Origin: Austropuccinia psidii
Lineage: Eukaryota; Basidiomycota; Pucciniomycetes; Pucciniales; Sphaerophragmiaceae
DNA length: 64,000 nt
NCBI GenBank assembly: GCA_023105745.1
Contig: JALGQZ010000001.1
Location: 56,563,437 to 56,627,436 of the forward strand
Reading direction: 5' to 3'
Both the position numbers and the translations under genes were made by a program. The notes beneath the pieces are model-generated. The model did no database searches. It saw only the letters and a list, made by a program, of their open reading frames with translations, and had not been told where the DNA came from. This document shows positions 27,119-61,161 of the stretch, one piece after another; the stretch's first letter is position 1, and every line of letters starts with the position of its first letter.

Positions 27119-30100
27119 TTATTGAGATGGAAGCTTGAGGTGGTAAGCATGATTACTGACTTTCTTCAAGATTGGAAAAGGACCCAACCATCTTTCAGAC
27201 AGTTTTTTGGTGGGTCTGGTTGATTTGATGTTCTTGGAAGAAAGCCACACCATGTTACCAGGATTGAAAACAGGTGGACTTGCTCTACTTATATCTGCAT
27301 ACCTCTTAAACCGGTTTATGGCAACTTCAAGTTCTGTCTTGACATCTTTCTGTACTGATAGGATTTTTGTTGATACCTTTCCAGCAGGAGTATCTTGAGT
27401 GATGTGAACTGAGTCAAATTGTGGATCTCTTCCATAAACAGTGAAGAACGGCGATTTCTTGGTGGAAGAGTGCTCAGAATTATTGTAGGCAAATTCAGCC
27501 AGAGGGAGCCAGGTGTTCCAATCATCTTGACGATAACTGACATACATCCAAAGATACTGCTCTAGTATCTGATTTACCCTCTCTGGCTGTCCATCAGTTT
27601 CTGGATGGTAAGCAGTTGACAAATCTCTTGAAATCTTGAGCTGCTGAAAAAGATTGGTCCAAAAGGATGAAAGAAAAAGGGGACCTCTATCGCTGACAAT
27701 GCTTGAAGGAAGGCCATGCTTTGAAAAGATATTCTTGATTAATAAATGGGCCAAATCTAATGAAGTGATTGAAGACATTATTGTAATTAAAACTGCCATT
27801 TTTGAGAATCTGTCCACTATGACAAGGATTGAGTCAAAAGGATTGGACAGTGGCAATTGAGTGATGAAATCGATAGAAAGACAAATCCAAGGACCATTTG
27901 GAATTGGAAGAGGTTTGAGGAGTCCAAAATTCTTGTGATGAATATTCTTGTTTCTTAAACACTGTTGACAGGATGAGACATAATCCTTGATGAATTGAGT
28001 AATGCCAGACCAGTGGAAATCACGCTTGACAAGTTTGAGAGTCTTCTCTTCGCAGGGGTGTCCAGCTAGAGGAGATTGATGACGCTTTTGAAGAATTCTG
28101 AGTTGAATTGTGGGGTCATTTGGGACCAACACCCAATCTTTGAAGAGAAGAAGTTGGGAAGAGGAATCAAGAGAATAATCCTGTATAGATTTACCTTTGC
28201 CCAATTCTTGAAGGATGCTTCTGTACTGAGAATATTGCCATAGAGACTTCTGAATTGAATCAATCAAATTTGAAAAAGCTTCCACCTTGACTGCAAAATA
28301 TCTTGAATGTTGGACTTCATCCTGCTTGATGAGCTGTTGAGAGTTCATTAGATTCTTGCTGATGAAATCCTCCCCCTCTCCGGATAAACGTCGTCCCAAC
28401 GTGACAAGGCATCCGGAAGAGTAGCTAGGGGGCCAGGGCGGTAAGTGATTGAGAAATGGAATTCAGAAAGGAATTCAGCCCAGCGGGCTTGATAGCAAGT
28501 GAGCACTTTTGAATACATGAAGTATTGGAGAGAAGAATGATTGGTGAGAACTTCAAAAGGGGAAGAGAGAGAGAAAGAAGAAACGCCCTCCAGCGCTTGA
28601 GGGCCCAGACTATGCCAAGGAGTTCCTTGTCATGAATCTTATAGTTGAGCTCTGCTGGGATAAGCTTGCGGCTGTTGAATGCAATGGCATGTTTTCCTGA
28701 GTCAGCGACCTGACTCAGTACAGAACCCAAGGAATAATTGGATGAATTGGTCTCTACAATGGTGGGTAGAGAAGGATTGGAGCAATGGTGAAAGCCTCTT
28801 TGAGTTGGTGAAACTGACTAAGAGCTTCCTCATTGAGGGGGAAACATGAATCTTTCTAGAGGAAACTGGTGAGTGAACTGATCTTCTTTGAATAATTCTT
28901 GATGAAAGGGTGGTAGAAGTTGGCAAAGCCAAGGAATGATTGAAGAGCCTTGGGGTTTCTTGGAGGTGGCAAATTGAGAATCTGCTGGACTTTTGCTGGG
29001 TCCATCTTGAGGACTTCAGAAGAACCAACATAACCAAGGTATTCTACACTAGAGACATGAAATAGGCACTTTGAAGCCTTAGAAAAAAGGATATTGGCTC
29101 TGAGTCTGGAAAGAACAGTGGAAACATGAGTGACATGTTCTTCCTCAGATTTGGAAAAGACCATAATTTAATCCAAATAAACCATAACATAAACATCAAG
29201 AAGATCTTGGAAAATATCATTGACAAGATTCTGAAAATAGGCAGGAGCATTGGTGAGCCCAATTGGCATAACTGCCATATTTGGTTCTGAAGCATGGAAA
29301 ATGTTCATCACCCTCCTTGATTCTGAACAGGTTGTATGAACCACGCAAATCAATCTTGGAGAAGATAGAAGAACCATTAAAAACATTGAGAAGCTGATTC
29401 ATAGGAGGAACAGGATACTTGTTCTTCCTAGTGTCAGCATTGAGTTTGCAGTAATCAACACACAAACGGAGGCCACCACCTTTCTTTTTGACAAAGAGGA
29501 CAGGTGCTCCTGTTGAAGAGGAGCTTGGACGGATTAAACCTTTCTCTACATTCTCTGAAATGTAGGCCCTGAGTGTATCTGACTCTTGTTTGGATAAAGC
29601 GTAGATCACCCCAACTGGAGGTAGTGACCCCTCCAGCTTGATATGATGATAACAGGCGCGGTTAGGAGGAAGTTTCTCTGCTTTCACCTTAGAGAATACA
29701 TCCAAGTATTGGTGATAAGTAGAAGGAACAACCTTCATCACGGTTTCTATTTCTTCTGGCTCTTCCTCTTCATCCCACAACTCCTCCAGGGAGTCATGAT
29801 AAGATGAAGGAGGAAGGTCCATATTCCCAAAGAAGAGATGAAGTGAAGATACAGAATTATCTTCTCCAAAATTTTGAATCTATTTGAAGACTTCATCTCT
29901 AGAGGGCCATAATGACATATGGGAAGTAAGGGAAGGAATATGGACAGAGGATGGAAATGATGATGTTCTAGAATCACCAACCAGAGCTGCACATGATTTG
30001 GTAGAAGAAAAATCATTAGTGAAAGAATTTTAGGGATCATAATAGTCCTTATGGTTAGCATTGAAGGTAATCAGCCCTTTCCTCCCATCAAAAGATGGAT

Positions 30101-44065: not shown

Positions 44066-45391
44066 ATGACTACCAGAAGAGGCTCCCAATACTCCATTTA
44101 ATCAGATGGACCTAGACTCAGAGGTAGAATTGATTCCTCAAAAGGGAAAAGGAAGGGCAATATCCCCAGTGGAACAGAATACACACAAGGAAGTGCCTTA
44201 TCTCAAAGGCAAGTCCCAGAAATGCCCATGATATCTGAACCAGAATTATAACTAAGTATGAGTGACTCAAACAGGTACAAATCACATTCAGAGGGCTCAA
44301 ATAGACATTTACATGAGCCAGTACAAACAGTACTACATGGTGTACAAGGAAAAAGATTGGGAAATGTTGCCCCAAATACACCAAGGAGTGATGAACTCCT
44401 GGCACATCCTGAAAAAGTTCCTCAAAGAGGAGAAAATAGTGAAATACTCCAATGGATAGAATCCACTATCATCCAAACCTCAAATCAAAAAGATCAAGGA
44501 GTACCACAACAAAAAGAAGGAGGCAACCAAGGAAGAAGCCCCAGTAGCTTATACCAGCAAGCCCCAAGCCAACCCACTTCCCCAAGAAGGGAAGAAGAAC
44601 AAGAAAAAGAATTGGAGAAAACCATATTCCCAAAGCTACAGGATCCCCAAAATCCAAAAAGATGCCATGGAAAATGTATTCAACATGGCCAGAACTTTGA
44701 TGAAATTCAAAGACAAAGAGGAGCAAAGAATGAGACAACCCCATTTCCCAAAGAAATAATCTTGTCTCCTGATGTTGTAAATACTTCAACAGAGCCTAAA
44801 AATAGTATTTTACCTCTTAAAGACATTAAAAACAGTTTATTATCTTTCCAAGAAATAAATAATAGCTTATCATCTTTAACAAAACTTGTTGTACAAAATA
44901 AAAAAGAAATTGATAATATAAGATTTATGATTGAAAATAATAAACCAAAAGTATTAATTGATAATACTCAGAAATTAATACAAGGACAACAAGAGTTGTA
45001 CAAATACATAAGTGATATTAAAGAAAAAACTTTAACAATCAATTATGATGTGAGTATTGATAATCTTACAGAAAAATTAAACAAATTGAGCATTTCTGCA
45101 GAAAGTTTTGAAGAAAAGACTTCATCACACCAAAAATTACTTTTAGACCATGTGGAAAAGAGTGATGAAGCAAGAATGCATCTGAAAGATGACATTAAAA
45201 GTGAAATAAGGCTTATTACTGAAAAAATGGATAAAATTAATGAGGCTAACTCAAATACGCCAAAGTTATCAACACAATTTTCTCACATAAGAAGCCCTGT
45301 TAAGCCAAAAGAGGAATTAACAAATCCATTCATAACAGAGTTAATTCACCAAGACAATAACCAAGTCTTAATAAAGGAAGCACCTCAATAG
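44066..45391 (+). pseudogene. A gag, N-terminal and coiled-coil part
   Basis: The gag frame starts at ATG 44066 and has early stops (44096, and before 44258). From 44258 to 45391 it is open for 377 codons. It is hydrophilic, with long heptad-like helical stretches (FMIENNKPKVLIDNTQKLIQ). It ends at a one-base deletion near 45390, where the reading moves to the next block. Homologous to E1 gag. Confidence 0.85.
44079..44759 (+). pseudogene. A overlapping ORF in +1 frame of gag
   Basis: Read in the +1 frame relative to gag. An open part (44262-44456) contains MNSWHILKKFLKEEKI at 44391. A TAG at 44457-44459 sits where E1 has Trp. The frame then runs to a stop at 44757 with NWRKPYSQSYRIPK, VFNMARTLMKF and KEEQRM. 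This block is about 60% identical by eye to E1 5582-6022. Stops between 44229 and 44262 suggest a second intron. The function is unknown. Confidence 0.55.
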
Positions 45392-45395
45392 AAGA

Positions 45396-46737
45396 ATGGC
45401 CAACATTCACAGGAGAAGGTGAATATGACCACATGTCATTTATCAAAACAATTGACATTCTAAAAGAAGATTATGCCATACCAGATGAATTAATCACTGC
45501 AAGATTACACTCATTATTTGAAAAATCTGCAAAAAGATGGTATTATGGCATAAGGCAAACAAATGGCAAAAATACCTGGTGTTGGTGGAAACAAGAGATA
45601 ATCACCAAGTGGGCTAATGATGCCTGGAGGTAAAATATAGAGAATGCATTTGAAAATTATTTCTTTGACCCAGAAAAAGACAAGCCTTTAACTTGGTTCT
45701 TAAAACAAGTTTAAAGACTCAATGCATTTTACCCAGAAATTTCAGAGAAAATGGTGCACATGAAGATACTTAAAAAATGTGGAGGAGAGCTAGAACATGC
45801 CTTAAGAAGCAGGTGTATAGAGCCATGCTCCACAGAAGAGTATATAAATGCACTAGAAGACATAGTGACAAGAACAAAAATTGGAAGAACTTGGAAGAAA
45901 TTGGACATTAAAAGTCCAAATAAACCATTTATCAAAAAGGATAAATCAAAAGAACCTTTCAAGCCCAATAAGAACAATAATAATGAGCAAAGAAAATGCA
46001 ATAAATGTGGAGGTATTGGACATTTAGCCAATAATTGCCTCAAAAAGGCAAAGATTAATGAAATTGTGGAAACAGAAAACCACAATGACAAAGAGGAGGA
46101 ATATGACTCTGAAAAAGAAACAGAAGAGTCAGAAAGTTCTGAAAGTGATGAAATTAATATAATTAATGCAAAAATTAAAAATATTGATATAATTTATGAG
46201 GTACTGGATGTTAACTCAAACTTACCACAAGTTGGGACATCTGACACAAACCTAACAAATATACAAGATGCTAAAATGTACAGAACCAAACCTGCAAAAG
46301 GAATGGGATATACAGCTGGAAAATCAAGTATAAGTATTGTTATGGTTGATAACCAAGAAGGAAAAGTGAACTTAGATACAGGAGCATATTGCACCTGTTT
46401 TGGTAAAAGTTATTTAAAAACCATTGTCCCAGACTGGCACAAAAAACTCATGCCAATACAAGGTGTCAAATTTAGTAGTGCAAGTGAGAGCATGAAGCCC
46501 ATTGGAATAATTGATTTAACACTAATTTTTCCTCACCCTTCACAATGTGTCAGAATTAAAGTAGAGTTTGTAGTAATGGACAACTGTACCAGTAATCACT
46601 TCATACTTGGAAATGACTACCTATCAATTTATGGTATTGATATCTCTAACCAAAAAGATAGATATTTTACCATAGGAGATAACAAAAGACAAACATTTGG
46701 CTTCTTAAATAACAAAAAAACAAATAACAGCTATTAA
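45396..46737 (+). pseudogene. A capsid, zinc knuckle and protease
   Basis: The capsid-like part GEYDHMSFIKTIDILKEDY is followed by in-frame stops at 45631 and 45711. Then comes a 328-codon open block (45751-46737) with a CCHC knuckle (CNKCGGIGHLANNC), an acidic Glu/Ser linker, the protease active site NLDTGAYCTCFG and the flap-side motif HFILGNDYLSIYGIDI. The block ends at a frameshift in the A-rich tract near 46715. Confidence 0.88.
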
Positions 46738-46822
46738 GAATGAGGAAAAAAGTCCAGAAAAGGACCTTTTTATATCTTAAAAGCTGAAAGAGGAAGAATT
46801 AAATCAATAATTAACAGAAAAA

Positions 46823-47472
46823 ATGAAAGAAAAATTGATTGACCTTTTATTTAAATACAAAAATGCCTTTGTAACTGACAAGGAGCCACTAGGTGCCATA
46901 ATTGGGCATGAGGTGGATATAATTCTTAATGTGGAAAAGCCTTACCCACCTTTACTAAGGAGACCAGCTTACCCAGCTAGTCCAAGGGCTAGAGAAGCCT
47001 TGGAGGTACAAATTAAAGAATTAATGGACCTTGGTGTATTAAGAAAGGTAGGACATAATGAACAGATAGAGGTCACTACACCTGTCATTATAACTTGGCA
47101 TAATGGAAAATCAAGGATGGTAGGAGACTTCAGAGGCCTGAACACCTATACCATTCCAGACAGATAACCAATACCCAGAATCCATGAGACATTGACACAA
47201 TTGTCACAAGCTAAGTTCATTACAGCCATGGATGCCTTAAAGGGTTTTCATCAAAACATCTTAACAAACAATGCCAAGAAACTACTAAGGATAATAGTCC
47301 ACTGTGGGATTTTTGAATACTTAAGAATGCCATTTGGCATAAAAAATGCACCTTCCCATTATCAAATAATGATGAATACCATATTCCCTGAATAATTATA
47401 AGAAGGATGGCTAATAATCTATATTGATGACATCATAGTTTACTCAGAAACTTGGGAAAATCACCTTACAAG
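46823..47472 (+). pseudogene. A reverse transcriptase, 5' part, interrupted by element B
   Basis: Motifs in order: RRPAYPASPRAREALEV, TPVIITWHNGKSRMVGDFR, D in [23 protein letters not shown], and YIDDIIVYSETWENHLT at about 47419. Stops occur at 47165 and 47396. B is inserted inside the Thr/Arg codons after NHL. Confidence 0.92.
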
Positions 47473-48235
47473 TGTAACAACCATCCATCAGGGGTAAGGG
47501 TATTCATTCATACACCCACTCAAACACCTCAAATCAGCAAATCCAGTATCTGCATCAGCAGTCAGTTTCAGCAATCTTCATTCTGAAACATGCATACAGC
47601 TTGGTACATCAATACAGCCTGTCAATACCTGTACAGGTTGGATTCACCCAATACAGTTTCAATACACCAGTATGGAACTGTATGATCACTCAAATACACC
47701 ACACCTCTTGTACAGGTTCTGTACAGCTGTACAGGACCTGTATTGGCCAGACTCAATTCAATCATCAATTGTTCTCATGAAAATTCTTCCTCTGGATCAG
47801 GGCTGGTGATTCTCACATATACCAGCCCCTCTTTCTCCCCCCTGGGGACTTTTCCCCAGTTAATTAATTTAGTTTATTTATTATTTTATAATTATTCTTA
47901 TCCTTATTTTGGGTATTATAATTATTTAATCTTAAGTTAGTCTTTGCATTTTTTTCTCTTCGCCTGTACAGTATGAGTTGGGTGGCCATATCCTTATTAA
48001 CCCTTCTCTTTCCATTCTGACAGGTTGAAACAGTGGACTTGGACTTGTTTGTGGTTGGCTCTTCTATTCTTTTACTCTTATCTTTTGTTGCTGCTTTTTC
48101 TTATATTTATTCTTTAGCAATTTATCTTTAACACTCTTAAGTGTATCTCATCTTATCTTATCTTTGAGCCCTCCATAAGTGAGTCCCAGTTTACTGAGTG
48201 CCAGGCCCTCTTCACTTCAAAGAGCCCCTGTGACA
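47473..48235 (+). repeat. 5' LTR of B
   Basis: TGTAACAACC...CCCCTGTGACA. U3 contains several CTGTACAG palindromes (47628-47637 within CCTGTACAGG; 47708-47745). A TATA-like CATATACC near 47816 is followed about 40 bp later by the AGTTAATTAATTTA motif, proposed to be the RNA start. Confidence 0.96.
47842..47859 (+). other. Hairpin next to the proposed RNA start in the LTR of B
   Basis: CTGGGGA and TCCCCAG pair perfectly around a CTTT loop and abut AGTTAATTAATTTA (47858-47871). S has the analogous sequence at about 60738-60756, and both LTRs of C keep most of it. Confidence 0.6.
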
Positions 48236-48236
48236 T

Positions 48237-48250
48237 TAAATTAATTAACT
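48237..48250 (+). other. Candidate self-priming primer-binding site of B
   Basis: TAAATTAATTAACT, 1 nt inside the LTR, is the exact reverse complement of 47858-47871 within the LTR. No tRNA-like TGG site is present. The Tf1/sushi group is known to prime from its own RNA 5' end in this way. Confidence 0.65.
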
Positions 48251-48898
48251 CATATTTGATTCTTTCTTTTCATTCATTTATATTCATTTCCTCTCATTCA
48301 TCAATTATGACCTTTTCATGATTTTATGATTTTTTATGATTTTCTATGAAATTTTCTCTCTCATCAATTTTCATCTCATTCTTTTCATTCTTATGAAAAT
48401 TGATTCTTTTTCCTTTCTTAATCATTGCTGACCATTTCATCACTTCATTTTATTTTTATCAATCAAATTTTTTCTGTGTTCTTATTCAGGTTTTATCTAG
48501 GGATTATTGATTGGTTTAATTGATTGGATTATTCATTGGGATTCATTTGGGTTATTGATTCAGGATTTATTGGATTTATTGACTTTGAACTCTCAAGATA
48601 TTGAATTGATTTCTGAAGATTTTGAACTGATTGATTGATTCCTCAAGACTTGATTTCATTTGAAGACACTTATTGATTGATTATTGATTGAATATTGATT
48701 GATTATTGATTTCCTCAAGATTATTGATATTTGATTGAATTGATTGTTGATTGATTGAATTTATTTGACTGTTGATTGAATTTGATTCCTCAAGATTTGA
48801 ATTGATTCCTCAAGATTCATCAAGATTTTATTGTGATTGATTTGGCCAAGCCTGATTATTCTTCTTAATACCATCAAGTTATTTTAATTATTTTCATA
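48251..48898 (+). other. 5' leader of B
   Basis: U-rich low-complexity sequence with many TTGATTGATT and CCTCAAGA words, shared in style with C. No ORF of note before the gag ATG. Confidence 0.6.
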
Positions 48899-50260
48899 AT
48901 GCCAGTCCAGCATAGCCCCCCAGCAAAGAATACTAGATCCCAGAAAATTCCAGCTGTTCTCACTCCTACAGCAAGGGCTCCTCTTGACCGCACACCATCA
49001 GTTCATCAACTGAGTGCAAATTTGGACAGAGGACCACCAATGGAAGGAGCAGCACCCTCAAGAAGAGGTGGAATGAAATCTAGAAGATCAAGATCCTTTT
49101 CTGGACTTTTGGGTGGCTACCCTGGCATGTCTGAAGGTGCAAGAGCAAGATTAGGGGAAGTTGAAGATGAAGAGGGGGAAGAGTCTGTGGAAGAGGAAGA
49201 TTCTGGGGAAACTGAAGTGGCAGATGCCTTGGCAAATGCTCCAGAGGTGCCTCAGGGTTCTAATCTAGCCCTTTCTAGTCAACCTCTTGTCTCTCAAACT
49301 GATCCAAGTCTCCTCAAGATGATGGAGCAGATGACTCAATTCATGGGACAACTCACTCAAGCAGTTGCCCCCAGGGACAATTCCAAAGCCCCTGCTTTCA
49401 AGACTCCATCCATGAAGGCACCTGATTCTTTTGATGGTACTCAAGCTCATAAGTTGAAAGGATTTATCCAATCCTGTCAACTAATTTTCCATAATGATCC
49501 AGCAAACTTCTTCTCTGACAGGAAGAAGGTTTTGTACTTAACTTCTTTTCTTACTGGTAGAGCTGGCAAATGGATTGAACCTTACCTCTCAAATATTTCC
49601 AATGAAGACCCTTCCTACCTCCTCAATAATTGGCCATTGTTTGAATCTCAATTATTCACTCTGTTTGGTGACCCCAATGAAGTCAGGAAAGCTGAACAAG
49701 AGTTGGACAATTTGAGGATGAAGGAAAGTGGTCATGTTTCCTTGTACATAGCAGATTTCAGAAGCTTAATGTCAAGAATTGGAGATTGGGGGGAAAGAGC
49801 TTATATCCATGTTTACAGAAGAGGATTGGCATCAAGATTATTGGATCAGTTGGCTTCTCACCCTGGAACTTTTGATACTCTTCAAGAACTTATGGATGTC
49901 ACTCTAGAATTAGACACAAGATATCATGAGAGGCAAAAGGAAAAGGGTGGCAATCAAGAAAAGAAGCCTCCAGTCAGTGGATCCAATCAGTCTAGGCCTC
50001 CTCAAAGCTCATTTCAAAAGAGGCCTCATAAGAAGAAGAATAAGAAGGGCAAGCAATTTCAATCTTCAAAGGACAAACCCCATGCTGCTCTCCTCAATAA
50101 GGACAATAAATTAATCGGTTCTGAAAAGGAGAGGAGGATTCAAGCAGGGTTGTGTACTTATTGTGGTGGCAAGCACCCAATTGAAAAATGCTTCAAGAGA
50201 CCTCATAACAAGCCTGGGTCATCATCAGGAGGCTTCCCTAGCAAGCAGGGAAAAGCCTGA
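48899..50260 (+). CDS. gag: B gag polyprotein
   Basis: 453 codons, intact, starting at ATG with [10 protein letters not shown]. The order is a disordered Ser/Glu-rich N-terminus (residues 1-150), then a retrotransposon capsid-type domain of about 200 residues ([53 protein letters not shown]). Next comes a Lys-rich basic stretch and a C-terminal knuckle [13 protein letters not shown] (CX2CX3HX4C). Gag binds and packages the element RNA into cytoplasmic particles. The stop at 50258 follows the GGGAAAA heptamer closely, so a fraction of ribosomes may shift into pol. Confidence 0.94.
50248..50254 (+). promoter_or_regulatory. -1 ribosomal frameshift heptamer of B
   Basis: G-GGA-AAA is in the zero frame of gag, followed by GCC and the TGA stop. 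Slipping back one base reads on without a stop into protease. The same heptamer and spacing occur in C at 30500-30506. Confidence 0.75.
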
Positions 50261-53200
50261 GTGGGGATCATGATGTGTTCAATGGTTCTCACTTATTTCC
50301 TTCAAGAGCACAATTGTGCACTCTGAATACTAGTGTCAAGAAATCTTTAAAATTTCTTATTTTCTCTTCTGTCTCTGATATTTTTTATAGTATTCTCATT
50401 GATTCTGGTGCTACAAACTCTTTTATTGCAAAGAATTTTGTTCTCAAGTACTCATTGACTCTGTCAGAGCTCCCTGAAAAGATTCCTCTTTTCATTTTGG
50501 ATTCTAATGAATCCCCTGCCTTGTTCATCACCCATTATACCAAGTGGGTAGTTGACTTGCCTTCCTTCCCAAGCTTTGAATGGGATTTCTTTATCATAGA
50601 TTCACCCAAAGGAGAAGACCTGATATTGGGCTATGATTTCCTTTACCATTTCAATCCCATTATTGATTGGAAAAATGGATTGATCACCTATGATTCTAAT
50701 CATAAGGTTTCTAGTGGTATTATTCCTTCTACTAGTAATGACTTAGCCACTGCTGTCAACAGTGTTGCTCTGGCTGGTGAACTTAAGACACCTTCCATCC
50801 CTTCTTCTGTCCATATCCCTTCCATAATTCCCTCTCAGTCATTACTTCCATCAAGAGATGAAGTCTTCAAAGAGATAAAGGATGTTGGAGAAGATGTTGC
50901 CATATCTTCACTTCATCTCTTCCAAGGGGATATGGACCTTCCTCCCTTATCTTTTCATGCATCCCTGGAGGAGCAGTGGGATGAGGAGGAAGAGCCAGAA
51001 GAAATTGAAACTGTGTTGAAGGTTGTTCCTCCTGCTTATCACCAATATTTGGATGTATTCTCCAAGGTGAAAGCAGAGAAACTTCCTCCACACCGCACCT
51101 GTGATCACCATATCGAATTGGAGGGTCTTCTACCTCCAATTGGTGTTATCTACTCATTATCAAATCAAGAGTCAGAAACACTGCGGGCCTACATTTCAGA
51201 GAATGTAGAGAAAGGTTTCATTAGACCAAGCTCCTCTTCAACAGGAGCACCTGTCCTTTTTGTCAAGAAAAAGGATGGAGGTCTTCGTTTGTGTGTTGAC
51301 TACCGCAAACTCAATGCTGTCACTAGGAAGAACAGATACCCTGTTCCTCCTATGAACCAGCTTCTTACCGTATTCAACGGTTCCACTATCTACTCCAAGA
51401 TAGATTTGCGTGGTGCATATAACCTTCTGAGAATCAAAGAGGGGGATGAGCACTTAACTGCCTTTAGAACCAAATATGGCAGTTATGAGTATTTGGTCAT
51501 GCCATTTGGTTTGACCAATGCTCCTGCTTCTTTCCAAAATCTAGTAAATGATATCTTTGCAGATTTTTTGGATGTGTTTGTTGTGGTTTATCTAGATTAT
51601 ATTATGGTCTTTTCCAGTTCTGAGGAGGAACATGTCAAACATGTGGCCTCTGTCCTCCAAAGACTGAGGGACAATAATCTGTTTGCCAAAGCCTCCAAGT
51701 GTGTATTCCATGCCTCAAGTGTGGAATACTTGGGCTATGTTGTTTCAAGTGATGCCCTCAGGATGGATTCTTCAAAAGTTCAGCAAATCCTCAATTGGCC
51801 TCAGCCCAGAAACATCAAGGCTCTTCAATCTTTTCTTGGATTTGCCAATTTTTATCGACGTTTCATTAAAAATTATTCTAAAAAAAATCACTTCTCTCAC
51901 TTCCCTCCTTAAAAAATATTCTCCTTTCATCTTCAATGAGGAAGCTCTTAGTCAGTTTCAAGCACTCAAAGAAGCTTTCACCTCTGCTCCTATCTTATCT
52001 CACTTTAATCCTTCTCTACCTACTATAGTAGAGACTGATGCCTCTGATTATGCTTTGGGCGCCGTACTGAGCCAGGTGAATGACTCAGGAAAGCACCCCA
52101 TTGCATTTGATAGTCGCAAGCTCTTACCAGCTGAGCTCAACTATGAGATTCATGACAAGGAACTCCTTGGCATAGTTTGGGCTCTCAAGTGCTGGAGAGC
52201 ATTTCTTCTTTCTCTTTCCAATCCTTTTGAGGTCTTGACAGACCACTCTTCCTTGCAATATTTCATGTCTTCCAAAGTTCTTACTCGTCGTCAGGCCCGT
52301 TGGGCCGAATTTCTCTCAGAATTTCATTTCACTATCACTTACCGCCCAGGCAGGCTGGCCACTTTACCAGATGCCTTGTCACGTCGGGACGACGTGTACC
52401 CAGAGAGGGGGGTGGACTTCATCAGCAAGAATCCTCAGAATTTTCATCAAGTACTTAAGCAAGATGGAATTCAAGAGTCAAGATTCTTCTCAATCAAAGT
52501 GGAAATTTTCTCAGATTTAGTTGACAATATTCAAGGAGAAGTATGGCAAGACAAAGACTATAAAGAAATACTCAAGCAACTAGCAAGAGGTGAATCAGTT
52601 CCAGATTATTCTCTTGAACCTCAAGCCAAGTTATTATTATTCAAAGATAGAGTGGTAATCCCAAGCAATGAAGAACTTCAACTCAATATTCTTCAAAAGC
52701 GTCATGACTCACCATTGGCTGGCCATCCTGGCCAGGAGAAGACCCTCAAGCTCATCAAGAGGGATTTTTATTGGGCTGGCATGAATCAATTCATCAAGGA
52801 ATATGTGTCCTCATGTCAGCAATGTTCAAGAAACAAGAACATCCATCACAAGAAGTTTGGATTACTCAAGCCTCTTTCAATTCCATCTGGTCCTTGGAAT
52901 TCATTATCAATGGACTTTATCACTCAATTGCCACTGTCCAACAACTTTGATTCAATTTTAGTAGTTGTGGACAGATTCTCAAAAATGGCAATCTTCATTC
53001 CAACTTATGGCACAATCACTGCTCTGGATTTAGCTCAAATATTCATTAGTCATGTATTTTCCAAGCATGGACTCCCAGTCAGTATTGTCAGTGATAGAGG
53101 ATCCTTATTTGTTTCATCATTCTGGACTCAATTGTGTCAGCAGCTCAAGATATCAAGAGATCTTTCAACTGCCTTTCACCCTGAAACAGATGGACAGACA

Positions 53201-53977
53201 GAGAGGGTAAATCAGATACTAGAACAGTACCTTTGGATGTATGTCAGCTATCATCAAGATGACTGGTACACCTGGCTCCCTCTGGCTGAATTTGCCTATA
53301 ATAATGCAGAACATTCATCAACCAAGCAATCACCTTTTTTCACCATTTATGGAAGAAATCCCAGCTTTGACTCAATCCATATTTCTCAAGACTCACCTGC
53401 TGGAAAGTTATCAACAAAACTCCAATCAGTACAGCAAGTTGTCAAAGAAGAATTAGAGTCAGCAATAAGGAGATTCAAGAAGTATGCAGATAGAAATAGG
53501 GCAATTCCACCTGATTTCCAACCTGGGGACAAAGTATGGCTAGCTTCCAAGAACATCAAGACAACAAGACCCACCAAGAAATTATCAGAAAGATGGTTGG
53601 GACCCTTTGAAGTTCTTAAGAAGATTGGCAGCCATGCATATCACCTCAAGTTGCCTCAGCAATGGAAGACAGTTCACCCTGTATTCCATGTGTCCTTATT
53701 AGAACCAGTCAAGCATTCAACTATCCCAAATCGTCATCAATTGCCTCCACCACCAGTTTTAGTGGAAGAGCAAGAAGAATGGGAAGTGGCTCAGGTTCTG
53801 GACTCAAAACTCAAAAGAGGTAATTTATGGTATCTTGTAGAGTGGAAAGGATTCAGTGAAGACCCAGAAAGAACCACTTGGGAACCAGCTTCCAACCTTA
53901 CCAACTCACCAGACCTTGTCAAGGATTTCCACTCATTGTATCCAGACAAGCCTGGTCCAAATACCTCAAGAGTTTGA
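50251..53977 (+). pseudogene. pol: B pol polyprotein: protease, RT, RNase H, integrase, chromodomain
   Basis: Read in the -1 frame after gag. Protease DSGA is at about 50401. RT starts near 51060, with [20 protein letters not shown] in [10 protein letters not shown], and the catalytic box YLDY at 51589-51600 (second Asp replaced by Tyr). An eight-A run (51880-51887) shifts the frame by one; the rest is open to 53977. RNase H acids are in VETDASDYALG, IHDKELLG and TDHSSLQYF. The integrase HHCC (RHDSPLAGHPG, CQQC) and DDE acids (SMDFITQLPL, VSDRGSLF, TDGQTERVNQ) are intact. The C-terminal chromodomain (53773-53950) has WYLVEWKGFSEDPERTTWEP. Apart from the two defects it looks functional. Confidence 0.92.
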
Positions 53978-53979
53978 TT

Positions 53980-54465
53980 TTATGGTGCTTGGTGGGGAGA
54001 AGAAGTTATGAAAGTAAGTTCCTCTCCTGGCATGCACCTTTAAGGGGGTATTCTACCCATATGTTGTTGTAAGCATCACCTTGGCCACTTTGTGAGCACT
54101 TGTCAATTCTTTGGACAGGTTCAGGAAGCATACAACATCAATACCCTCCATTTGGACCTTATCAAGATATGGCCAAATATTTTCTTTCTTTCTTTATGTT
54201 TCATTTTCCTTCTTTATTATCATTTCATTTTATGCCAATCATCATAATTCAAGACATTCATTACTTCAAGTCATTTACGGCAATTCATTTCAGTAGTCAT
54301 TTATGGCAATTCATTTCAGAAGGCATTTATGGCAATTTATTTCAGTCTTATGGTGCTTGGTGGGGAGTGGAAGTTATGAAAGTAAGTTCCATCTCCTGGT
54401 ATGCATCCCTGAGGGTTCTACTTCTTTTAAAACATCACCTTGGCCACTCTGTGAGCATCAAATGC
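53980..54465 (+). repeat. Duplicated 110-bp module around a 3 x 26-bp tandem repeat, downstream of B pol
   Basis: Copies near 53980-54095 and 54350-54465 share TATGGTGCTTGGTGGGGAG, GAAAGTAAGTTCC, CTCCTGG and ATCACCTTGGCCACT. Between them, 54272-54349 holds three 26-bp units starting CATTTAYGGCAATT. Element C carries one antisense copy of the module at about 26705-26820. Confidence 0.7.
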
Positions 54466-54752
54466 TTGGTTTTCATTTTTCAGACACTTTTTTGGCCAGA
54501 ATCAAGCAACTCACCACAAGAAGGACCAACCATCAGGATTTTTCTTTATTTCTTTCTTTACTCTCATTTTCTCTTATTATTTTTCTTTCTTCTTTACTTG
54601 TATAATTTTATTTCTTTTATTTCTTTAAAGCAGCAGCATCCCCTCCCCAAATCATGTATTGGGAGGTTCCATTATCTTTTTTATTTTTTATTTTTTAGTA
54701 TTTATAAGAGTGGGGATAGAAGCCAAACCAAACACAAACAGGGAAAAGGAAA

Positions 54753-55993
54753 CTAGTTATCTCTACCCAAGTCATCAAAAGTTCTCTGGAAGTCATTTAT
54801 CAACTCATCCTCATACCAGGCAAATTTTGCAGCCATCTCTTCAGAAGCAGTACCTGGAATAGTCCTGTCATTGGCATACATAATCACCTCTCTGCTATTT
54901 CTATCAACCCTCCTGAACAATCTGGCCACAGCATCTTGATTTTCACTAGCCGCGTTGGGATCTTCTCTGGTAACCCGGATAGGCCAACGTTCTCTTCTTT
55001 GGAAGACTTGGGCAGCAGGAAAAGGCAAAGGGGATAATCCATCTCTTCTTCTGCTGGAGCTGGCCACAGGTTGGAGTTGACGGGAGGTGGTTATGGGTGA
55101 GTTTCTAGGCTGTTGAACTGGTGATGGTCTTACTGCTGGAATCAAGGCAGGCCTGGTGGTATGGGAAGTAGTTGGTGAAGGAGGAGGAAGGGTTGTAGGA
55201 ATGGAGGCAAGCATTGGTTGAAAGGTTCTTGGAGTACTGGGAATGACTTGACTTTGGAATCTGGTGTTGGCAAGAGGTTGAGAGGAGGAATTGCTGGATG
55301 GATGGCCACTTGAATGGGGAATAACTTGAACTTCTTCACCATCCAACTCATCACTTCCTTCAGCATCTGGATCTGATGGGGAATCAACAATTCTTCTTAG
55401 CTTCTTCACTACTTTCACCACTCCATCAGCATTGGTCCTTGAAATTGGAATTTCTGAGCTGTAGTGGATGGGCCTACCACCAATTGGAATGGACCCTCCA
55501 ACATTAGTCCATCTGGCCACATCCCTCTGCCTGGAACCAGTCACTACATCAAGATATCAGCACCAATTCAATCAAAATATGCAAATCACTCACATTGAGA
55601 AAATCCAGAAGAGGCATCAGGGGTAGGCTCCTCAAGAATGGGGAACTCCTGCCCATAAGGCCCATCCTTCCTACTCCACAAGTGTCTCTTGACCCGGGAC
55701 AAAGTTGATCCGGTACGGCGGCATGGCTTCTTCCCAATAAAGCAGAAATGGCATTTTGACGATCGAGGATTGTAATGTTGAAAGCAATCCTTACCCCTGG
55801 CCAAACACTCAGTACAGGCAGGATCAAGGAATTCAACTGCTCTGAACCCATCATATGTTTGGGAGGGGTCAAAATGGCCAGAAGACGCCATAGAAGGAGA
55901 AGACAATCGACTGAAGACGCCAGAACCATGAAGAATAGACGTTGGCGGTGCAGAAGGGGAAGATTCAGTGAGCTCAGTCAGTTTGGAACTCAT
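54753..55993 (-). CDS. Antisense spliced gene of B with Zn(II)2Cys6-like motif
   Basis: Lies opposite to pol, between pol and the 3' LTR. Exon 1 is 55993-55594 (MSSKLTELTE start; an upstream in-frame ATG at 56047 is an alternative). The intron 55593-55544 (50 bp) has GTGAGT at its start and TAG at its end. Exon 2 is 55543-54753. The product is 396 residues with no stop. Exon 1 encodes C-X2-C-X6-C-X10-C-X2-C-X6-C (residues 60-91; 55816-55721), exactly the spacing of the GAL4-type binuclear zinc cluster, followed by a basic stretch (RRTGSTLSRVKRHLWSRK). Exon 2 is Ser/Pro-rich and disordered, then has a conserved-looking helical C-terminus (AVARLFRRVDRNSREVIMYA). I recall close relatives among predicted A. 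psidii proteins. A nuclear DNA-binding regulator is the best guess. A different zinc fold is possible. Confidence 0.7.
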
Positions 55994-56342
55994 AACTGAA
56001 GAATATGCAAGCAGAAGATTCAAGACATCAGAATCAATCCACTCCATATCAAGAAAAAAGGAACTTGACTCAAGGAAATGGGGCCATAACTCAATTATGC
56101 CCCCCCTCAAAGCCTCTAAGGTGAAGGTTCATACCCCTTTGGGGCTGAAATCATCACCCAGGGCCTCCCCTGCAACTTTGGGGAGGCCAGGATCTTGATG
56201 GTCCTGGACCCCATCAATGGGTCCAGGCCATGTAGGGTAAACAATGGGTAAGGGCCATTTCTGGACCCCTTGGTCACCCTGGGTCCCCAGCAAATTTGGG
56301 CCCAGGGGCTCCATTTTGGTCCTGGGGGCCTCCAATAGCCCC

Positions 56343-56412
56343 CACGGACCGCAGACCGCGGCGTACGGTCCACGGCCCATGGACCGCGGACCACGGACCG
56401 CGGACCGTAGGA
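56343..56412 (+). repeat. 7-bp tandem array with CGG triplets upstream of the antisense gene
   Basis: About ten degenerate heptamers of consensus CRCGGAC. CGG starts at 56345, 56359, 56366, 56373, 56387, 56394 and 56401, all in 7-bp register; CCG occurs five times. It includes CCGCGG at 56356, 56384 and 56398, and CGGACCG at 56345, 56394 and 56401. It lies about 350 bp upstream of the antisense ATG. Confidence 0.8.
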
Positions 56413-56999
56413 TCGCAAAGACTCAAAAAGGCCAAAAAAAGGCCAAAAATCAAGATATCAAGGTTTTTCACCAGAGCACCCAAAAAGGCCCATAGGCCAT
56501 AAAAAAATCAAAAGCATCAATTGTCATCAGAGCAAAGGCCACATCCCAAAGTGCCTTATAGGGCTGTTAAGGCCATCTCCATGGATTATGGGGACAAGAC
56601 CCCTTGGAGGAAATTTTTTCAAATGTTTCAATTTTTCAATTTTTTCCAGAGATTTAAGGCTTGCCCAATGAGTACACTTCATATACTCATTGGGCATCAT
56701 TTTTTGAGCACAAGAGCTCAGTGGTCCTTATTCTGGGATATATCCCAAGGCCACACCCCAAGAGCATGGCTGATTGAATCAAAAGAAGGAATGGCATATT
56801 CTGGAAGGAATACTCACTTAAGCTTGGAAAAAGGGGGGAATCAATTGAATTTGGCAGGGAAGAAGGAATGAAGGATTTTCAGGATAATGGTCAAGAGGAA
56901 AAGAAAATTAAAAAGAAAATTTTTTGAAAAAATGTGGGGATATTGAGATGCCACTCAACAGTGGCAGGGTATTATGGTGTTCAGGAGCCCACCAGTTTC
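56413..56999. other. Non-coding 3' region of B
   Basis: Rich in GGCC and AAAGGCC words at first, then AT-rich. An open frame at 56521-56871 has no recognisable domain, and I do not consider it a gene. Confidence 0.5.
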
Positions 57000-57012
57000 A
57001 AGAGGGGGATAC
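57000..57012 (+). other. Polypurine tract of B
   Basis: AAGAGGGGGATAC directly before the 3' LTR; the counterpart in C is GGTAGGGGGTAC. Confidence 0.75.
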
Positions 57013-57775
57013 TGTAACAACCATCCATCAGGGGTAAGGGTATTCATTCATACACCCACTCAAACACCTCAAATCAGCAAATCCAGTATCTGCATCAGCA
57101 GTCAGTTTCAGCAATCTTCATTCTGAAACATGCATACAGCTTGGTACATCAATACAGCCTGTCAATACCTGTACAGGTTGGATTCACCCAATACAGTTTC
57201 AATACACCAGTATGGAACTGTATGATCACTCAAATACACCACACCTCTTGTACAGGTTCTGTACAGCTGTACAGGACCTGTATTGGCCAGACTCAATTCA
57301 ATCATCAATTGTTCTCATAAAAATTCTTCCTCTGGATCAGGGCTGGTGATTCTCACATATACCAGCCCCTCTTTCTCCCCCCTGGGGACTTTTCCCCAGT
57401 TAATTAATTTAGTTTATTTATTATTTTATAATTATTCTTATCCTTATTTTGGGTATTATAATTATTTAATCTTAAGTTAGTCTTTGCATTTTTTTCTCTT
57501 CGCCTGTACAGTATGAGTTGGGTGGCCATATCCTTATTAACCCTTCTCTTTCCATTCTGACAGGTTGAAACAGTGGACTTGGACTTGTTTGTGGTTGGCT
57601 CTTCTATTCTTTTACTCTTATCTTTTGTTGCTGCTTTTTCTTATATTTATTCTTTAGCAATTTATCTTTAACACTCTTAAGTGTATCTCATCTTATCTTA
57701 TCTTTGAGCCCTCCATAAGTGAGTCCCAGTTTACTGAGTGCCAGGCCCTCTTCACTTCGAAGAGCCCCTGTGACA
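57013..57775 (+). repeat. 3' LTR of B
   Basis: 763 bp, two differences from the 5' LTR. Confidence 0.97.
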
Positions 57776-58939
57776 ACAAGACTAGAAAGGGTACTAAAAA
57801 AACTAGTGCAAGTGAATATGAAAATTTCCTTGAAAAAGTGTCATTTTGCATATAGTGAACTAAAAGGACTAGGACATGTTGTATCTGGACTTAGTGTAGG
57901 CATAGACAAGAATAAAGTAGCAGCAGTACTACTAAATCCAATGCCTCAAACCAAGAAGGAAATGCAATCATTTCTAGGATTTGCTGGCTACTATAGACAG
58001 CATATAAAGGACTTTGCAAAAATTGATAAATCCTTGTATAAGCTATGTTACCAACAAAAAGTCTATGAAATGACAGAAGAAAGAGTCAAAGCATATGAAG
58101 AATTGAAAAATTCCTTGACAAATGCCCCATTTCTTCTAATGCCAGATTGGAAACTACCCTTCAAACTGTACATTGATGGTTGTGGAGAAGGACTAGGTGC
58201 TGCACTACACCAGACACAAATTATAAATGATAAACCAGTAGAAGGACCAATCTGTCTTATTTAAAGACAAATAAAGCCAACAGAAGCAAGATATGGAGCA
58301 AGCCAAATGGAATGCCTCTGCTTAGTGTGGGCTTTAGAAAAATTACATTATTACTTGGATGGAACAGTATTTGATGTGATTAAAGACTGTAATGCTGTAA
58401 AATCTCTATTAAATATGAAAACTCCAAATAGACATATGCTGAGATGGCAAATTGCTATCCAAGAATACAGAGGAAATATGAATATTGTTCATAAATCTGG
58501 CAATATTAATAAAAATGCAGATGGTCTTAGCAGATGGGCTCTAGCAAATACCCGTGACAATCCAGCATGGGTACCACAGGAAGAGCACCACATAGAAGGA
58601 ATATGTGTTACAGACATTGGCACAGAATTCTTTAACCAAGGTAAAGAAAACTATAAGATAGACAAGAATTGCCATATCTTAAGTCAACCTCTAATGAAAG
58701 ACTGCAAAGACCCATCACTTTCATCAAAATTAGATGAAACATGGAAAAAGGCATATGATGAAGGAAGATTCCACCTCCTTGATGGACTCCTTTATAATAG
58801 AACAAAACACACATGTGTTCTGGCCTTAACAGATAGAACCCTGAAAAACACTATTTTACATGAGTGTCATGATAGTGTTGCAGCTGGACACCTTCCAGAA
58901 GACAGAACACTAGAAAGAGCGAAGACCTGCTCTTGGTGA
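57776..58939 (+). pseudogene. A reverse transcriptase 3' part and RNase H
   Basis: Resumes exactly in the host frame after the B target-site copy. [35 protein letters not shown] and [16 protein letters not shown] are followed by a stop at 58262. RNase H continues with [31 protein letters not shown] (the usual TDC is changed to KDC) and NADGLSRW. The block ends at TGA (58937-58939) just inside the integrase zinc finger. Confidence 0.92.
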
Positions 58940-59524
58940 CCAAATTGGAAGAAAGATGTTTCAGAATACTGCCAAACCTGTGACAGATGTCAAAGAGCTA
59001 ACAGAGCCACAGGAAAGAAATTTGGAATGATGATCCAAATCCAAGAACCAAAATCCCCTTGGGAAATAGTTCATATGGATTGGGTAACAGCATTACCTCC
59101 AGGAGGAGACAGAAGCTATAATGCATGCCTAGTATTGGTTGGCAGGTATAGCAAAACCCCCATGTTCCTACCATGTCACAAAGATGACACAGCTATGGAC
59201 ACAGCTATACTGATATGGAATAAAGTTATTAGCCATACAGGCTTATTCCAAAATATTATAAGTGACAGAGACCCAAAGTTCAATTCAGCATTGTGGACAA
59301 ATCTCCATAACTTGTTTGGAACAAAATTATCATTCTCAACAGCCTACCATCCTCAAACTAATGGTTTAGCAGAAAGAATGATACAGACCTTCGAGGACAT
59401 GATCAGAAGATTCTGTGCTTATGGACTAGAATTCAAAGATTCTGAGGGTTTTAGCCATGATTGGTGTACACTACTACCAGCTCTTGAACTGGAATATAGA
59501 AAATCAATTCATTTTTCCACTGGC
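58940..59524 (+). pseudogene. A integrase, 5' part, interrupted by solo LTR S
   Basis: Zinc-finger cysteines CQTCDRCQ, then the core: D in HMDWVTALPP, D in ISDRDPKFNS and E in AERMIQTFEDM. All three catalytic acids are present. S is inserted after the peptide HFSTG. Confidence 0.92.
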
Positions 59525-61161
59525 TGTCACAACCATGAGTTTGACCCTCCTCCTTGATGGTTGCGGCAATCCAACCTGGAGCCAAGTTGGGGCCAATTGG
59601 CCACGTCATATCTTTTATGGCCAATTGGCCCCCTTGGGTGTCTATGGTATCCACGCCATAACACCTTCCCATGGCCATTCTATGGCCTCAGGCCATATCC
59701 TGCCGCCATTGGCCCTTTTGGCCAATTCCTACTTCACCAACCCCCAAACCTTCATCTTTGATTTTGGGCCTGGGGGGTCATTTGGTCTTCTAGGGGCCTC
59801 CAGGCCCCCTAGCCATCATCTTTGGATTCAGGGCCACCCCTTTTATTAATGGGGTTTTGGCCTAAATGGCCTTTTTGGGCCATTTAGGCCCCCTACGGCC
59901 CGTGGGCCGTGATTCACGGTCCGTAGGCCATTTAGGCCCCTTTTGGCCTAATCCAATGAGGCCAAAAGGGGCCAGTCACCTAGGCCCACCTGAGCCATTT
60001 TTGGCCACCACCTCCTTGGACCCAAAAATGACCAAAACCCTCATGGACACCCTTTTGGCCAGAAATCCCGTAGGACCACCATGGACCAATAGTTCAGCCA
60101 TGGCCTCTGGCAACCACCAGAGGCCACCAGATAAGCTCAGCCCGTCTTTCCCCTCAACTCCAGGGGATTTTCTCTTTTCCTCCATACGATCCGTACTCAA
60201 GGTTGCAGGCATGGTGCATATATGGTATTATATACCATTATGCACCATTTTTGCTCAGCAATCCAATGGTGACGTTTTCAGGATCCAATTCCACCTTCCC
60301 AACTCAAGGTCTCAAACCCCAACGCCCATTTTGAAGGAGGATTAATCAGCTCATCAGTCTGACAAGATATGGCGGCAATCAGAAGACTCTTCAAGGATCC
60401 CAACCACCTGTATCTTCAGGAGTTGGGTTGGCACAATTCATTCAGGATTATTCAAGGACAATTCTAAAGAGTTATTACATCATTTCAATCAGTTGTCAAG
60501 GCATCAAGTATTCAATACTCCTTTGGACAACCCAATTCATCCGTACAGGCCTCATTCAATCAACCTGTATGGTCTTGGCCCAATTGGGTCATTTCATATT
60601 CCACTGAGAGAATTCCATCACACAGTTCAATTTCAAGATAGCCAGAACTGTATTTCCCGATCCGGACAATACAGCCATTGATCCACCTTCCAGGATCAAT
60701 CTTTCAGTTTTCACATATACCCGCTACCTTTCAGCACTTGGGGACTTTTTCCCCAGTTAATTAATATATTGGATTTATCTTTGTCTCTATTTTCTTTTAC
60801 ATTATTAAAGTTAATACTGATAATCTTAAGTCAGTCATTAGCACCTTTTCTCTTTCTTTCTTCGCCTGTCAGTGGATATTGGTGGTCATATCCTTTACTA
60901 ATTCCATTGTTCTTTCTGGCAGGTTGAAACAGTGAATTGAAGATTCAATTGGTTGGCTTCTTGGCTTTTGGCTTTCTTTTATCTTTGGCCTCTGGCTTCA
61001 TTCTTATTTTTCTTTGTTATCTTTGGCATATTTGTCCTTTCTCTTATTCCTGCTTAAGAAATATATCCCATAGTATTTCTTATCATATTTTGGAGCCCTC
61101 CAAGTGAGTTCTTGATTCCTGAGTGCCAGGCCCTCTTGCTTTCATAAGAGCCCCTGTGACA
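59525..61161 (+). mobile_element. Solo LTR S (lineage II)
   Basis: 1,637 bp, TGTCACAACC...CCCCTGTGACA, flanked by an exact target-site duplication CTGGC (59520-59524 and 61162-61166). No internal element sequence is present, as expected after LTR-LTR recombination. Same family as the LTRs of C: GGCC-rich U3, a heptamer array at 59894-59928, a hairpin, and AGTTAATTAATATA at 60755-60768. Confidence 0.95.
59894..59928 (+). repeat. 7-bp repeat array in U3 of S
   Basis: Five heptamers (TACGGCC, CGTGGGC, CGTGATT, CACGGTC, CGTAGGC). The outer parts form a near-perfect inverted repeat (CTACGGCCCGTG with CACGGTCCGTAG). Related to the arrays in B (56343-56412) and C (25934-25968). Confidence 0.65.

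What the first reader, a model, noticed from the sequence alone, without database searches (positions are those of the whole stretch)
54753..55993. A retrotransposon carries an antisense, intron-containing gene with a GAL4-type zinc-cluster motif
The minus strand between pol and the 3' LTR of B encodes a 396-residue protein from two exons with consensus splice edges. Exon 1 has C-X2-C-X6-C-X10-C-X2-C-X6-C plus a basic stretch, the signature spacing of fungal Zn(II)2Cys6 transcription factors. The gene is free of stops in a young element. Antisense ORFs at this position are known in some plant gypsy elements, but I know of no described retrotransposon-borne Zn2Cys6 regulator. Function is inference.
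Basis: partly seen in the sequence, partly recalled or inferred. Interest (0 to 1): 0.88.

Follow-up and report, generated by a model that had tools for sequence, protein, structure and literature searches.

The report
Rust-fungus retrotransposon with antisense zinc-motif gene
A jumping element in a rust-fungus genome carries, on its opposite strand, a real and widely copied gene with one intron and a six-cysteine zinc-type motif; it probably helps control the element, but it is not a recognisable member of the GAL4 family and comparable reversed genes are known in other elements.

Summary
On the minus strand, between pol and the 3' LTR of a young Ty3/Gypsy chromovirus (47473-57775), two exons with a 50-nt intron encode 396 residues. 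It is no chance frame: 694 proteins match at E<=1 (the 120 listed are all from the myrtle rust Austropuccinia psidii MF-1), and 95 of 155 fetched models share the splice junction. The protein's six cysteines all fall in CX2CX6CX10CX2CX6C, and on a tree of copies they change almost only in single copies. The GAL4-family label is not borne out: PF00172 matches neither the window protein nor any of 52 homologues scanned but finds Gal4; the recalled PROSITE signature fails; AlphaFold is too uncertain. The copy is not intact: pol changes frame and the RT motif departs from YxDD. New lead: the window's densest CGG/CCG cluster lies 352-413 nt upstream of the antisense start codon. Best reading: a conserved antisense accessory gene whose zinc-domain protein regulates the element; regulation is inferred. 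Antisense genes at this position are known in plants (Grande, Retand) and in the fungal Boty (brtn): a new variant of a known kind.

The parts
47473..57775 (+). Ty3/Gypsy chromovirus 'B', complete from LTR to LTR, inserted in another Gypsy-like element
   Evidence: LTR pair and target duplication; Pfam domains Ty3_capsid, RVP_2, RVT_1, RNase H, integrase, chromodomain
47473..48235 (+). 5' LTR (763 bp)
   Evidence: two mismatches to the 3' LTR (47779, 48219)
57013..57775 (+). 3' LTR (763 bp)
47468..47472 (.). target-site duplication ACAAG, left copy
   Evidence: sequence
57776..57780 (.). target-site duplication ACAAG, right copy
   Evidence: sequence
47858..47871 (+). 14 nt of the 5' LTR complementary to 48237-48250, just inside the LTR: possible self-priming of reverse transcription
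   Evidence: interpretation by analogy with Tf1 (recalled)
48869..50260 (+). gag frame
   Evidence: PF19259 E 2.1e-12, PF03732 E 1.5e-10
50242..53977 (+). pol (protease, RT, RNase H, integrase, chromodomain), read in two frames with a change near 51.9 kb; RT motif YLDY at 51589
55594..55993 (-). antisense gene, exon 1 (residues 1-133, codon 134 begun), holds the Cys6 motif
55721..55816 (-). CX2CX6CX10CX2CX6C motif (residues 60-91)
55544..55593 (-). intron, 50 nt, GTGAGT...CTGAT...TAG (predicted; no RNA data)
   Evidence: same junction in 95 of 155 annotated MF-1 homologues
54753..55543 (-). antisense gene, exon 2 (rest of the 396 residues, with stop codon)
56345..56406 (.). CGG/CCG-rich array (7/14-bp period), 352-413 nt upstream of the antisense ATG; holds 13 of the 14 CpG of 55994-57012; candidate binding region, function inferred only

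Best explanation
The element carries a bona fide accessory gene on its antisense strand. Shown: an antisense frame of two exons, with relatives in hundreds of annotated A. psidii proteins and a compact six-cysteine motif. Inferred: the gene is transcribed from a promoter in the 1-kb stretch between its start codon and the 3' LTR, or inside that LTR, and spliced. Its antisense orientation is what lets it keep an intron, because the genomic RNA that is copied into DNA reads the intron in the wrong direction and cannot splice it out. The protein (Ser/Pro-rich N-terminus, Cys6 zinc module followed by a basic stretch, acidic patch, long disordered linker, helical C-terminus that may dimerise) most likely goes to the nucleus, binds nucleic acid through the zinc module and regulates transcription or silencing of the element. 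The CGG/CCG array upstream of its own start is the first candidate target.
For: Large protein family in A. psidii with a repeated splice junction (95 of 155). Cysteines are replaced in many single copies but rarely in whole groups of copies: mean excess of sharing 1.5 against 13.9 at 140 sites that change about equally often (permutation P 0.0022), and against 11.0 at 88 other sites of residues 40-133 (P 0.012). The CGG/CCG array has 12 triplets in 100 nt; the next densest place in the window has 6, and 60 first-order Markov simulations with the window's overall composition reach at most 5. It holds 13 of the 14 CpG of 55994-57012, in DNA where CpG is depleted to 0.15 of expectation. Antisense genes of plant elements encode nuclear or predicted DNA-binding proteins, some next to tandem repeats (PMC7264820, parts 1 and 2 of 3 read; PMC11963269, passages).
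Against: No Pfam DNA-binding family is matched above its cut-off. No reliable fold. No transcript evidence is available here. Against all 385 other sites, not only those that change about equally often, the cysteine test is not significant (P 0.106; P 0.25 in the smaller first set), and internal branches were only 11% of the tree in that first set, so selection is suggested, not proven. Only 36 of 123 rows with letters at all six positions keep all six cysteines. Weaker CGG/CCG groups also occur elsewhere in the window (6 in 100 nt inside the gene, 5 near 59.85 kb; three CGGNCCG outside the array), and I could not see whether the array recurs in other copies. That the homologues lie in retrotransposons was not seen directly.
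Confidence: 0.4

Rival explanations
1. The protein is an accessory nucleic-acid-binding factor that acts at the RNA or particle stage (nucleocapsid-like helper, RNA export or nuclear import of the pre-integration complex), not a transcription regulator. Its CxxC modules would be zinc knuckles of another kind.
For: No match to a DNA-binding Pfam family above its cut-off; the profile search of solved structures found six weak, non-significant matches, best to ribosomal protein L37 (E 0.43), with LAC9, a Zn2Cys6 protein, at E 1.7; the low-confidence model shows a helix and two strands instead of two helices. Rev-like and nuclear-import roles are discussed for antisense ORFs in PMC7264820.
Against: An own antisense gene, separate from gag, is an odd place for a particle protein; gag has a C-x2-C-x3-H-x4-C motif of its own, close to the usual knuckle (sequence; the knuckle spacing is recalled); acidic and disordered segments fit a nuclear regulator at least as well.
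Confidence: 0.2
2. A host gene, captured as DNA in antisense, rides along without a function for the element; its apparent conservation reflects a recent burst of copies.
For: Most tree length lies in terminal branches (internal 11%), as in a burst; the cysteine test is not significant against all sites (P 0.106); 87 of 123 rows have lost at least one cysteine. The sister element C in the window has no relative of the gene.
Against: Cysteines show far less group-wide change than about equally mutable sites; the frame stays open over 396 codons in a copy whose pol is broken; no named host-gene relative appeared among the 120 + 120 listed hits or the 4 of the long-protein search, though nearly all are called hypothetical proteins and these lists cannot exclude one.
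Confidence: 0.15
3. What matters is the antisense RNA, which pairs with the genomic RNA and damps or triggers silencing of the element; the protein is secondary.
For: Antisense transcription with a regulatory role is proposed for such regions (PMC7264820), and small RNAs from Gypsy elements are abundant in aggressive strains of another plant-pathogenic fungus (PMC8365987, passages).
Against: A 396-codon frame with conserved residues and an intron would not be expected if only RNA mattered.
Confidence: 0.1
4. The protein is a true member of the fungal Zn(II)2Cys6 (GAL4-type) transcription-factor family that has diverged beyond detection.
For: Spacing inside the family's range; one half-domain pairs with the second half of seven recalled Zn2Cys6 domains (33% identity over 21 columns, probability 65); LAC9 appears at E 1.7; CGG array nearby.
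Against: PF00172 is not reported for the window protein or 52 homologues with a working control; the recalled PROSITE signature fails; the family's basic residues between the second and third cysteine are only partly there.
Confidence: 0.12

Closest known systems
Antisense accessory ORFs of plant Gypsy elements (Grande gene23, RIRE2, Retand TRP28; 'aORF-3R')
   Same: Position between pol and 3' LTR, antisense orientation, conserved in most copies, nuclear or predicted DNA-binding products in some, sometimes with tandem repeats nearby (PMC7264820; PMC11963269)
   Different: Here a fungal chromovirus (Retand is non-chromovirus), a Cys6 zinc-type motif instead of TRP28 (PF04195 not reported), and a predicted intron; the word 'intron' does not occur in PMC11963269
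brtn, the antisense gene of Boty-like retrotransposons of Botrytis cinerea (Zhao et al. 2011, Virology 417:248; not held, known from citations)
   Same: Fungal retrotransposon with an additional antisense gene between pol and 3' LTR
Fungal Zn(II)2Cys6 (GAL4-type) transcription factors, Pfam PF00172
   Same: Cysteine spacing CX2CX6CX5-12CX2CX6-8C; following basic residues; CGG triplets as possible targets (recalled)
   Different: No HMM match, recalled PROSITE signature not met, fold unproven
HBZ, the antisense regulator of HTLV-1 (mentioned in PMC11963269)
   Same: A retroelement encodes a nuclear regulator on its antisense strand
   Different: A retrovirus of people, not a fungal retrotransposon; no sequence comparison was made

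Membership tests
Zn(II)2Cys6 / GAL4-type (PF00172) | Cysteine spacing CX2CX6CX5-12CX2CX6-8C | tested here: met
Zn(II)2Cys6 / GAL4-type (PF00172) | Score above Pfam gathering cut-off for PF00172 | tested here: not met
   Not reported for the window protein, 50 homologues and two more; Gal4 control 6.4e-12. Matches above E of about 0.1 are mostly dropped by the tool
Zn(II)2Cys6 / GAL4-type (PF00172) | PROSITE PS00463-type residues between second and third Cys (pattern recalled, not from a call) | tested here: not met
   fails in the window protein, passes in Gal4
Zn(II)2Cys6 / GAL4-type (PF00172) | Two-helix binuclear zinc cluster fold | tested here: inconclusive
   AlphaFold mean pLDDT 44.1 and 51.1; Foldseek: 0 of 148 matches with E<=0.001
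Zn(II)2Cys6 / GAL4-type (PF00172) | Binds two zinc ions and CGG triplets (recalled) | not testable with these tools
   CGG/CCG array nearby is circumstantial
Antisense accessory ORF of an LTR retrotransposon (aORF-3R) | Lies between pol and 3' LTR, antisense to gag-pol | tested here: met
Antisense accessory ORF of an LTR retrotransposon (aORF-3R) | Present in most copies of the element family | tested here: inconclusive
   694 related proteins, but their genomic context was not visible and the genome search did not complete
Antisense accessory ORF of an LTR retrotransposon (aORF-3R) | Transcribed from an own promoter | not testable with these tools
   no RNA data
Retand TRP28 antisense protein (PF04195) | TRP28 domain | tested here: not met
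   no Pfam family reported for the 396-aa protein
brtn of Boty | Sequence homology | not tested
   paper not held
Ty3/Gypsy chromovirus | LTRs, 5-bp target duplication, Gypsy gag and pol domain order, C-terminal chromodomain | tested here: met

The most novel reading that the evidence does not exclude
A fungal retrotransposon carries its own cis-trans control system: an intron-containing antisense gene for a zinc-cluster-type DNA-binding protein together with a CGG/CCG operator array placed upstream of that gene, kept CpG-rich in an otherwise CpG-depleted element, by which the element regulates itself or resists methylation, and which helped it to spread in one of the largest fungal genomes.
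Probability: 0.18. Interest if true: 0.87.

Novelty: new variant of a known kind. Interest (0 to 1): 0.58.

Why it matters
Antisense genes of LTR retrotransposons are described mainly from plants, and their function is open (PMC7264820). A conserved example with a predicted intron in a rust fungus, with a zinc-type motif and a distinctive candidate target array next to it, gives a case in which the regulator hypothesis can be tested from existing genome and RNA data. A. psidii has a genome of just over 1 Gb, over 90% covered by transposable elements, mostly Gypsy (PMC8063080, passages including the abstract), so a self-regulating Gypsy family there could bear on how rust genomes became so large.

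Tried and rejected
GAL4-type membership by Pfam, PROSITE-like pattern, profile-profile comparison, solved-structure search and AlphaFold/Foldseek: none gave support beyond the spacing and half a domain. The weak Ntox46 matches of exon-1 pieces (E 0.12 and 0.21, below cut-off) are taken as chance.

Relatives outside Austropuccinia: the scans of viral contigs and of bacterial/archaeal genomes found none, which says little about fungi. The protein searches list only 120 rows each, so relatives in other rusts below that rank are not excluded (length range about 218-693 aa). A search that shifts the length range to about 460-1460 aa scored the 7,992 candidates sharing most words and found 4 proteins at E<=10, all A. 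psidii, three of them already known.

dN/dS could not be computed: only protein sequences of the homologues were available. As a substitute I counted changes on a protein tree. In the first set 117 of 121 rows were kept; in the second all 156 (P0001, a part of the query, and P0122, a 1342-aa fusion, were left out beforehand). Columns 58-93 were left out of both trees. The second result is stronger than the first (matched-site P 0.0022 against 0.028); both are permutations over sites, not tests along the tree.

RNA folding of the CGG array: z -2.07, 5 of 200 shuffles fold as well; not pursued as an RNA element.

Full report
What is there. The stretch lies inside a complete Ty3/Gypsy element of 10.3 kb (47473-57775). 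Its LTRs are 763 bp, differ at two sites (47779, 48219), and are flanked by the 5-bp duplication ACAAG. Gag, protease, RT, RNase H, integrase and a C-terminal chromodomain are recognised by Pfam, so it is a chromovirus. A 14-nt match between the LTR (47858-47871) and the stretch just inside it (48237-48250) suggests self-priming as in Tf1 (the analogy is recalled). The copy is not intact: pol changes frame near 51.9 kb and the RT motif reads YLDY instead of YxDD.

The antisense gene. On the minus strand, exon 1 (55993-55594), a predicted intron of 50 nt (55593-55544; GTGAGT at the donor, CTGAT 17-13 nt before the end, TAG at the acceptor) and exon 2 (55543-54753) give 396 residues. tblastn finds no second significant match in the window. 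The related element C at about 24.7-34.0 kb, 60% identical over most of gag and 69-78% over the larger pol segments (42% over one stretch), has none.

More than chance. A search of 5.8 billion proteins gives 694 proteins at E<=1 among 7,346 candidates; the 120 listed are all named Austropuccinia psidii MF-1, the best at 87% identity over full length and one at 91% over 60% of it. A second search from a divergent member gives 822 at E<=10; its 120 listed rows are again A. psidii. Of the 155 fetched homologues, by my thresholds, 95 have the same junction as the window, 17 a shorter and 2 a longer span, 24 only exon 2, 14 only exon 1 and 3 neither. These are gene models; I do not know whether RNA reads supported them. 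The window therefore most likely comes from A. psidii or a close relative: it is AT-rich (36.6% GC), CpG-depleted (0.15 of expectation) and Gypsy-rich, as described for that genome (PMC8063080, passages).

The zinc motif. The protein has exactly six cysteines, all in CX2CX6CX10CX2CX6C. The spacing occurs in 0 of 200,000 shuffles of the protein and nowhere else in six frames of the window. Among 156 rows (window and 155 homologues), 123 have letters at all six places; 36 keep all six cysteines, 52 keep five, 35 fewer; phenylalanine is the commonest replacement letter at each of the six places. That looks like decay of dead copies. If so, changes should sit in single copies and rarely in whole groups. 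On a tree built without columns 58-93, 160 replaced cysteines need 151 changes, a mean excess of sharing of 1.5 per site. At 140 other sites with similar numbers of changes (16-39) the mean is 13.9 (permutation P 0.0022); at 88 other sites of residues 40-133 it is 11.0 (P 0.012); at all 385 other sites it is 8.7 (P 0.106). The first, smaller set pointed the same way more weakly (P 0.028, 0.095, 0.25). This suggests selection on the cysteines in the copies that gave rise to others; it is not a dN/dS.

The window copy also keeps arginines where most MF-1 homologues have Cys, His or Gln (sites 92, 93, 288, 319), as expected of a copy that has lost fewer CpG sites (inference; the gene's CpG ratio is 0.23).

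Not a recognisable GAL4 family member. PF00172 is not reported for the window protein, for any of the 50 homologues of alignment A1, chosen from the 120 listed, or for P0026 and P0100. The threshold was E<=10, though the tool drops most matches above about 0.1. Gal4 scores 6.4e-12 in the same tool. The PROSITE-type signature, recalled, fails in the window protein and passes in Gal4. Profile against profile, one half of the motif pairs with the second half of seven recalled Zn2Cys6 domains. Among solved structures the matches are not significant: best L37 at E 0.43, LAC9 at E 1.7. AlphaFold gives mean pLDDT 44.1 for the homologue P0003 and 51.1 for residues 45-133 of the window protein; Foldseek gives 148 matches, none with E<=0.001. 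The fold is open.

A candidate target. The densest CGG/CCG cluster of the window, 12 triplets in 100 nt, is at 56345-56406, 352-413 nt upstream of the antisense start codon. The next densest place has 6 and lies in the gene itself; 60 first-order Markov simulations with the window's overall composition reach at most 5. The array holds 13 of the 14 CpG of 55994-57012. CCGCGG occurs three times in 64 kb, all here (0.04 expected). CGGNCCG occurs six times, three here and three elsewhere in the window. CGG triplets are the classical targets of Zn2Cys6 proteins (recalled). This is a lead, since I could not see other copies.

How it most likely works. An antisense promoter upstream of 55993 makes a spliced mRNA. 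The intron survives retrotransposition because the copied RNA is of the other strand. The protein has a basic stretch after the zinc motif, an acidic patch (about residues 187-204), a Ser/Pro-rich linker and a helical end; the helices are at low confidence. I infer a nuclear regulator of the element. Shown: open two-exon frame, relatives, motif, position. Inferred: transcription, splicing, nuclear entry, DNA binding, target and effect.

What is known. Antisense genes between pol and the 3' LTR are described for Grande, RIRE2, Retand and PvRetro13 and for the fungal Boty (PMC7264820, parts 1 and 2 of 3 read). Retand elements encode a predicted DNA-binding TRP28 protein and about half of the clusters studied have tandem repeats in the same region (PMC11963269, passages). 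The antisense gene brtn is cited in PMC8365987 (passages); the original paper was not held. In PMC8063080 the words antisense, zinc and intron do not occur, and in PMC12210899 antisense and zinc do not. Searches for a retrotransposon-borne Zn2Cys6 gene showed no such paper in the titles and abstract openings listed; lists were capped and most papers were not opened. So the kind is known; the rust chromovirus host, the Cys6 motif, the predicted intron and the neighbouring array make it a new variant.

Noticed in passing
56345-56406: Densest CGG/CCG cluster of the window (12 triplets, 7/14-bp period), in CpG-depleted DNA, upstream of the antisense gene.
   Followed up: partly
51589-51600 and 29168-29179: The RT active-site motif departs from YxDD in element B (YLDY), and in the sister element C the same position is a stop codon. 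Whether this is a shared ancestral change or a mutational hotspot is unexplained.
   Followed up: partly
47858-47871 and 48237-48250: 14-nt complementarity between the LTR and the stretch just inside it, as expected for self-primed reverse transcription.
   Followed up: partly
homologues P0002-P0157: Cysteine is most often replaced by phenylalanine, and Asp to Tyr and Ser to Tyr/Phe recur too. This would fit G-to-T and C-to-A changes beyond the CpG deamination reported for this genome; the DNA was not seen.
   Followed up: no
55789-55794 (minus strand): A donor-like GTAAGG inside the zinc motif; 8 of 121 rows lack the last four cysteines with the first two kept, and P0084 and P0097 run directly from LAK to VTGS, as if an alternative intron removed them. 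Artefact of gene prediction or alternative splicing is open.
   Followed up: no
[quoted passage not shown]
   Followed up: no
44252-47472 and 57781-59557: Element B has inserted into the pol gene of another Gypsy-like element, whose RT continues on both sides.
   Followed up: no
P0122: A 1342-aa annotated A. psidii protein with PF07727 also contains a third of the antisense protein (86% identity), probably a nested insertion read as one gene.
   Followed up: no
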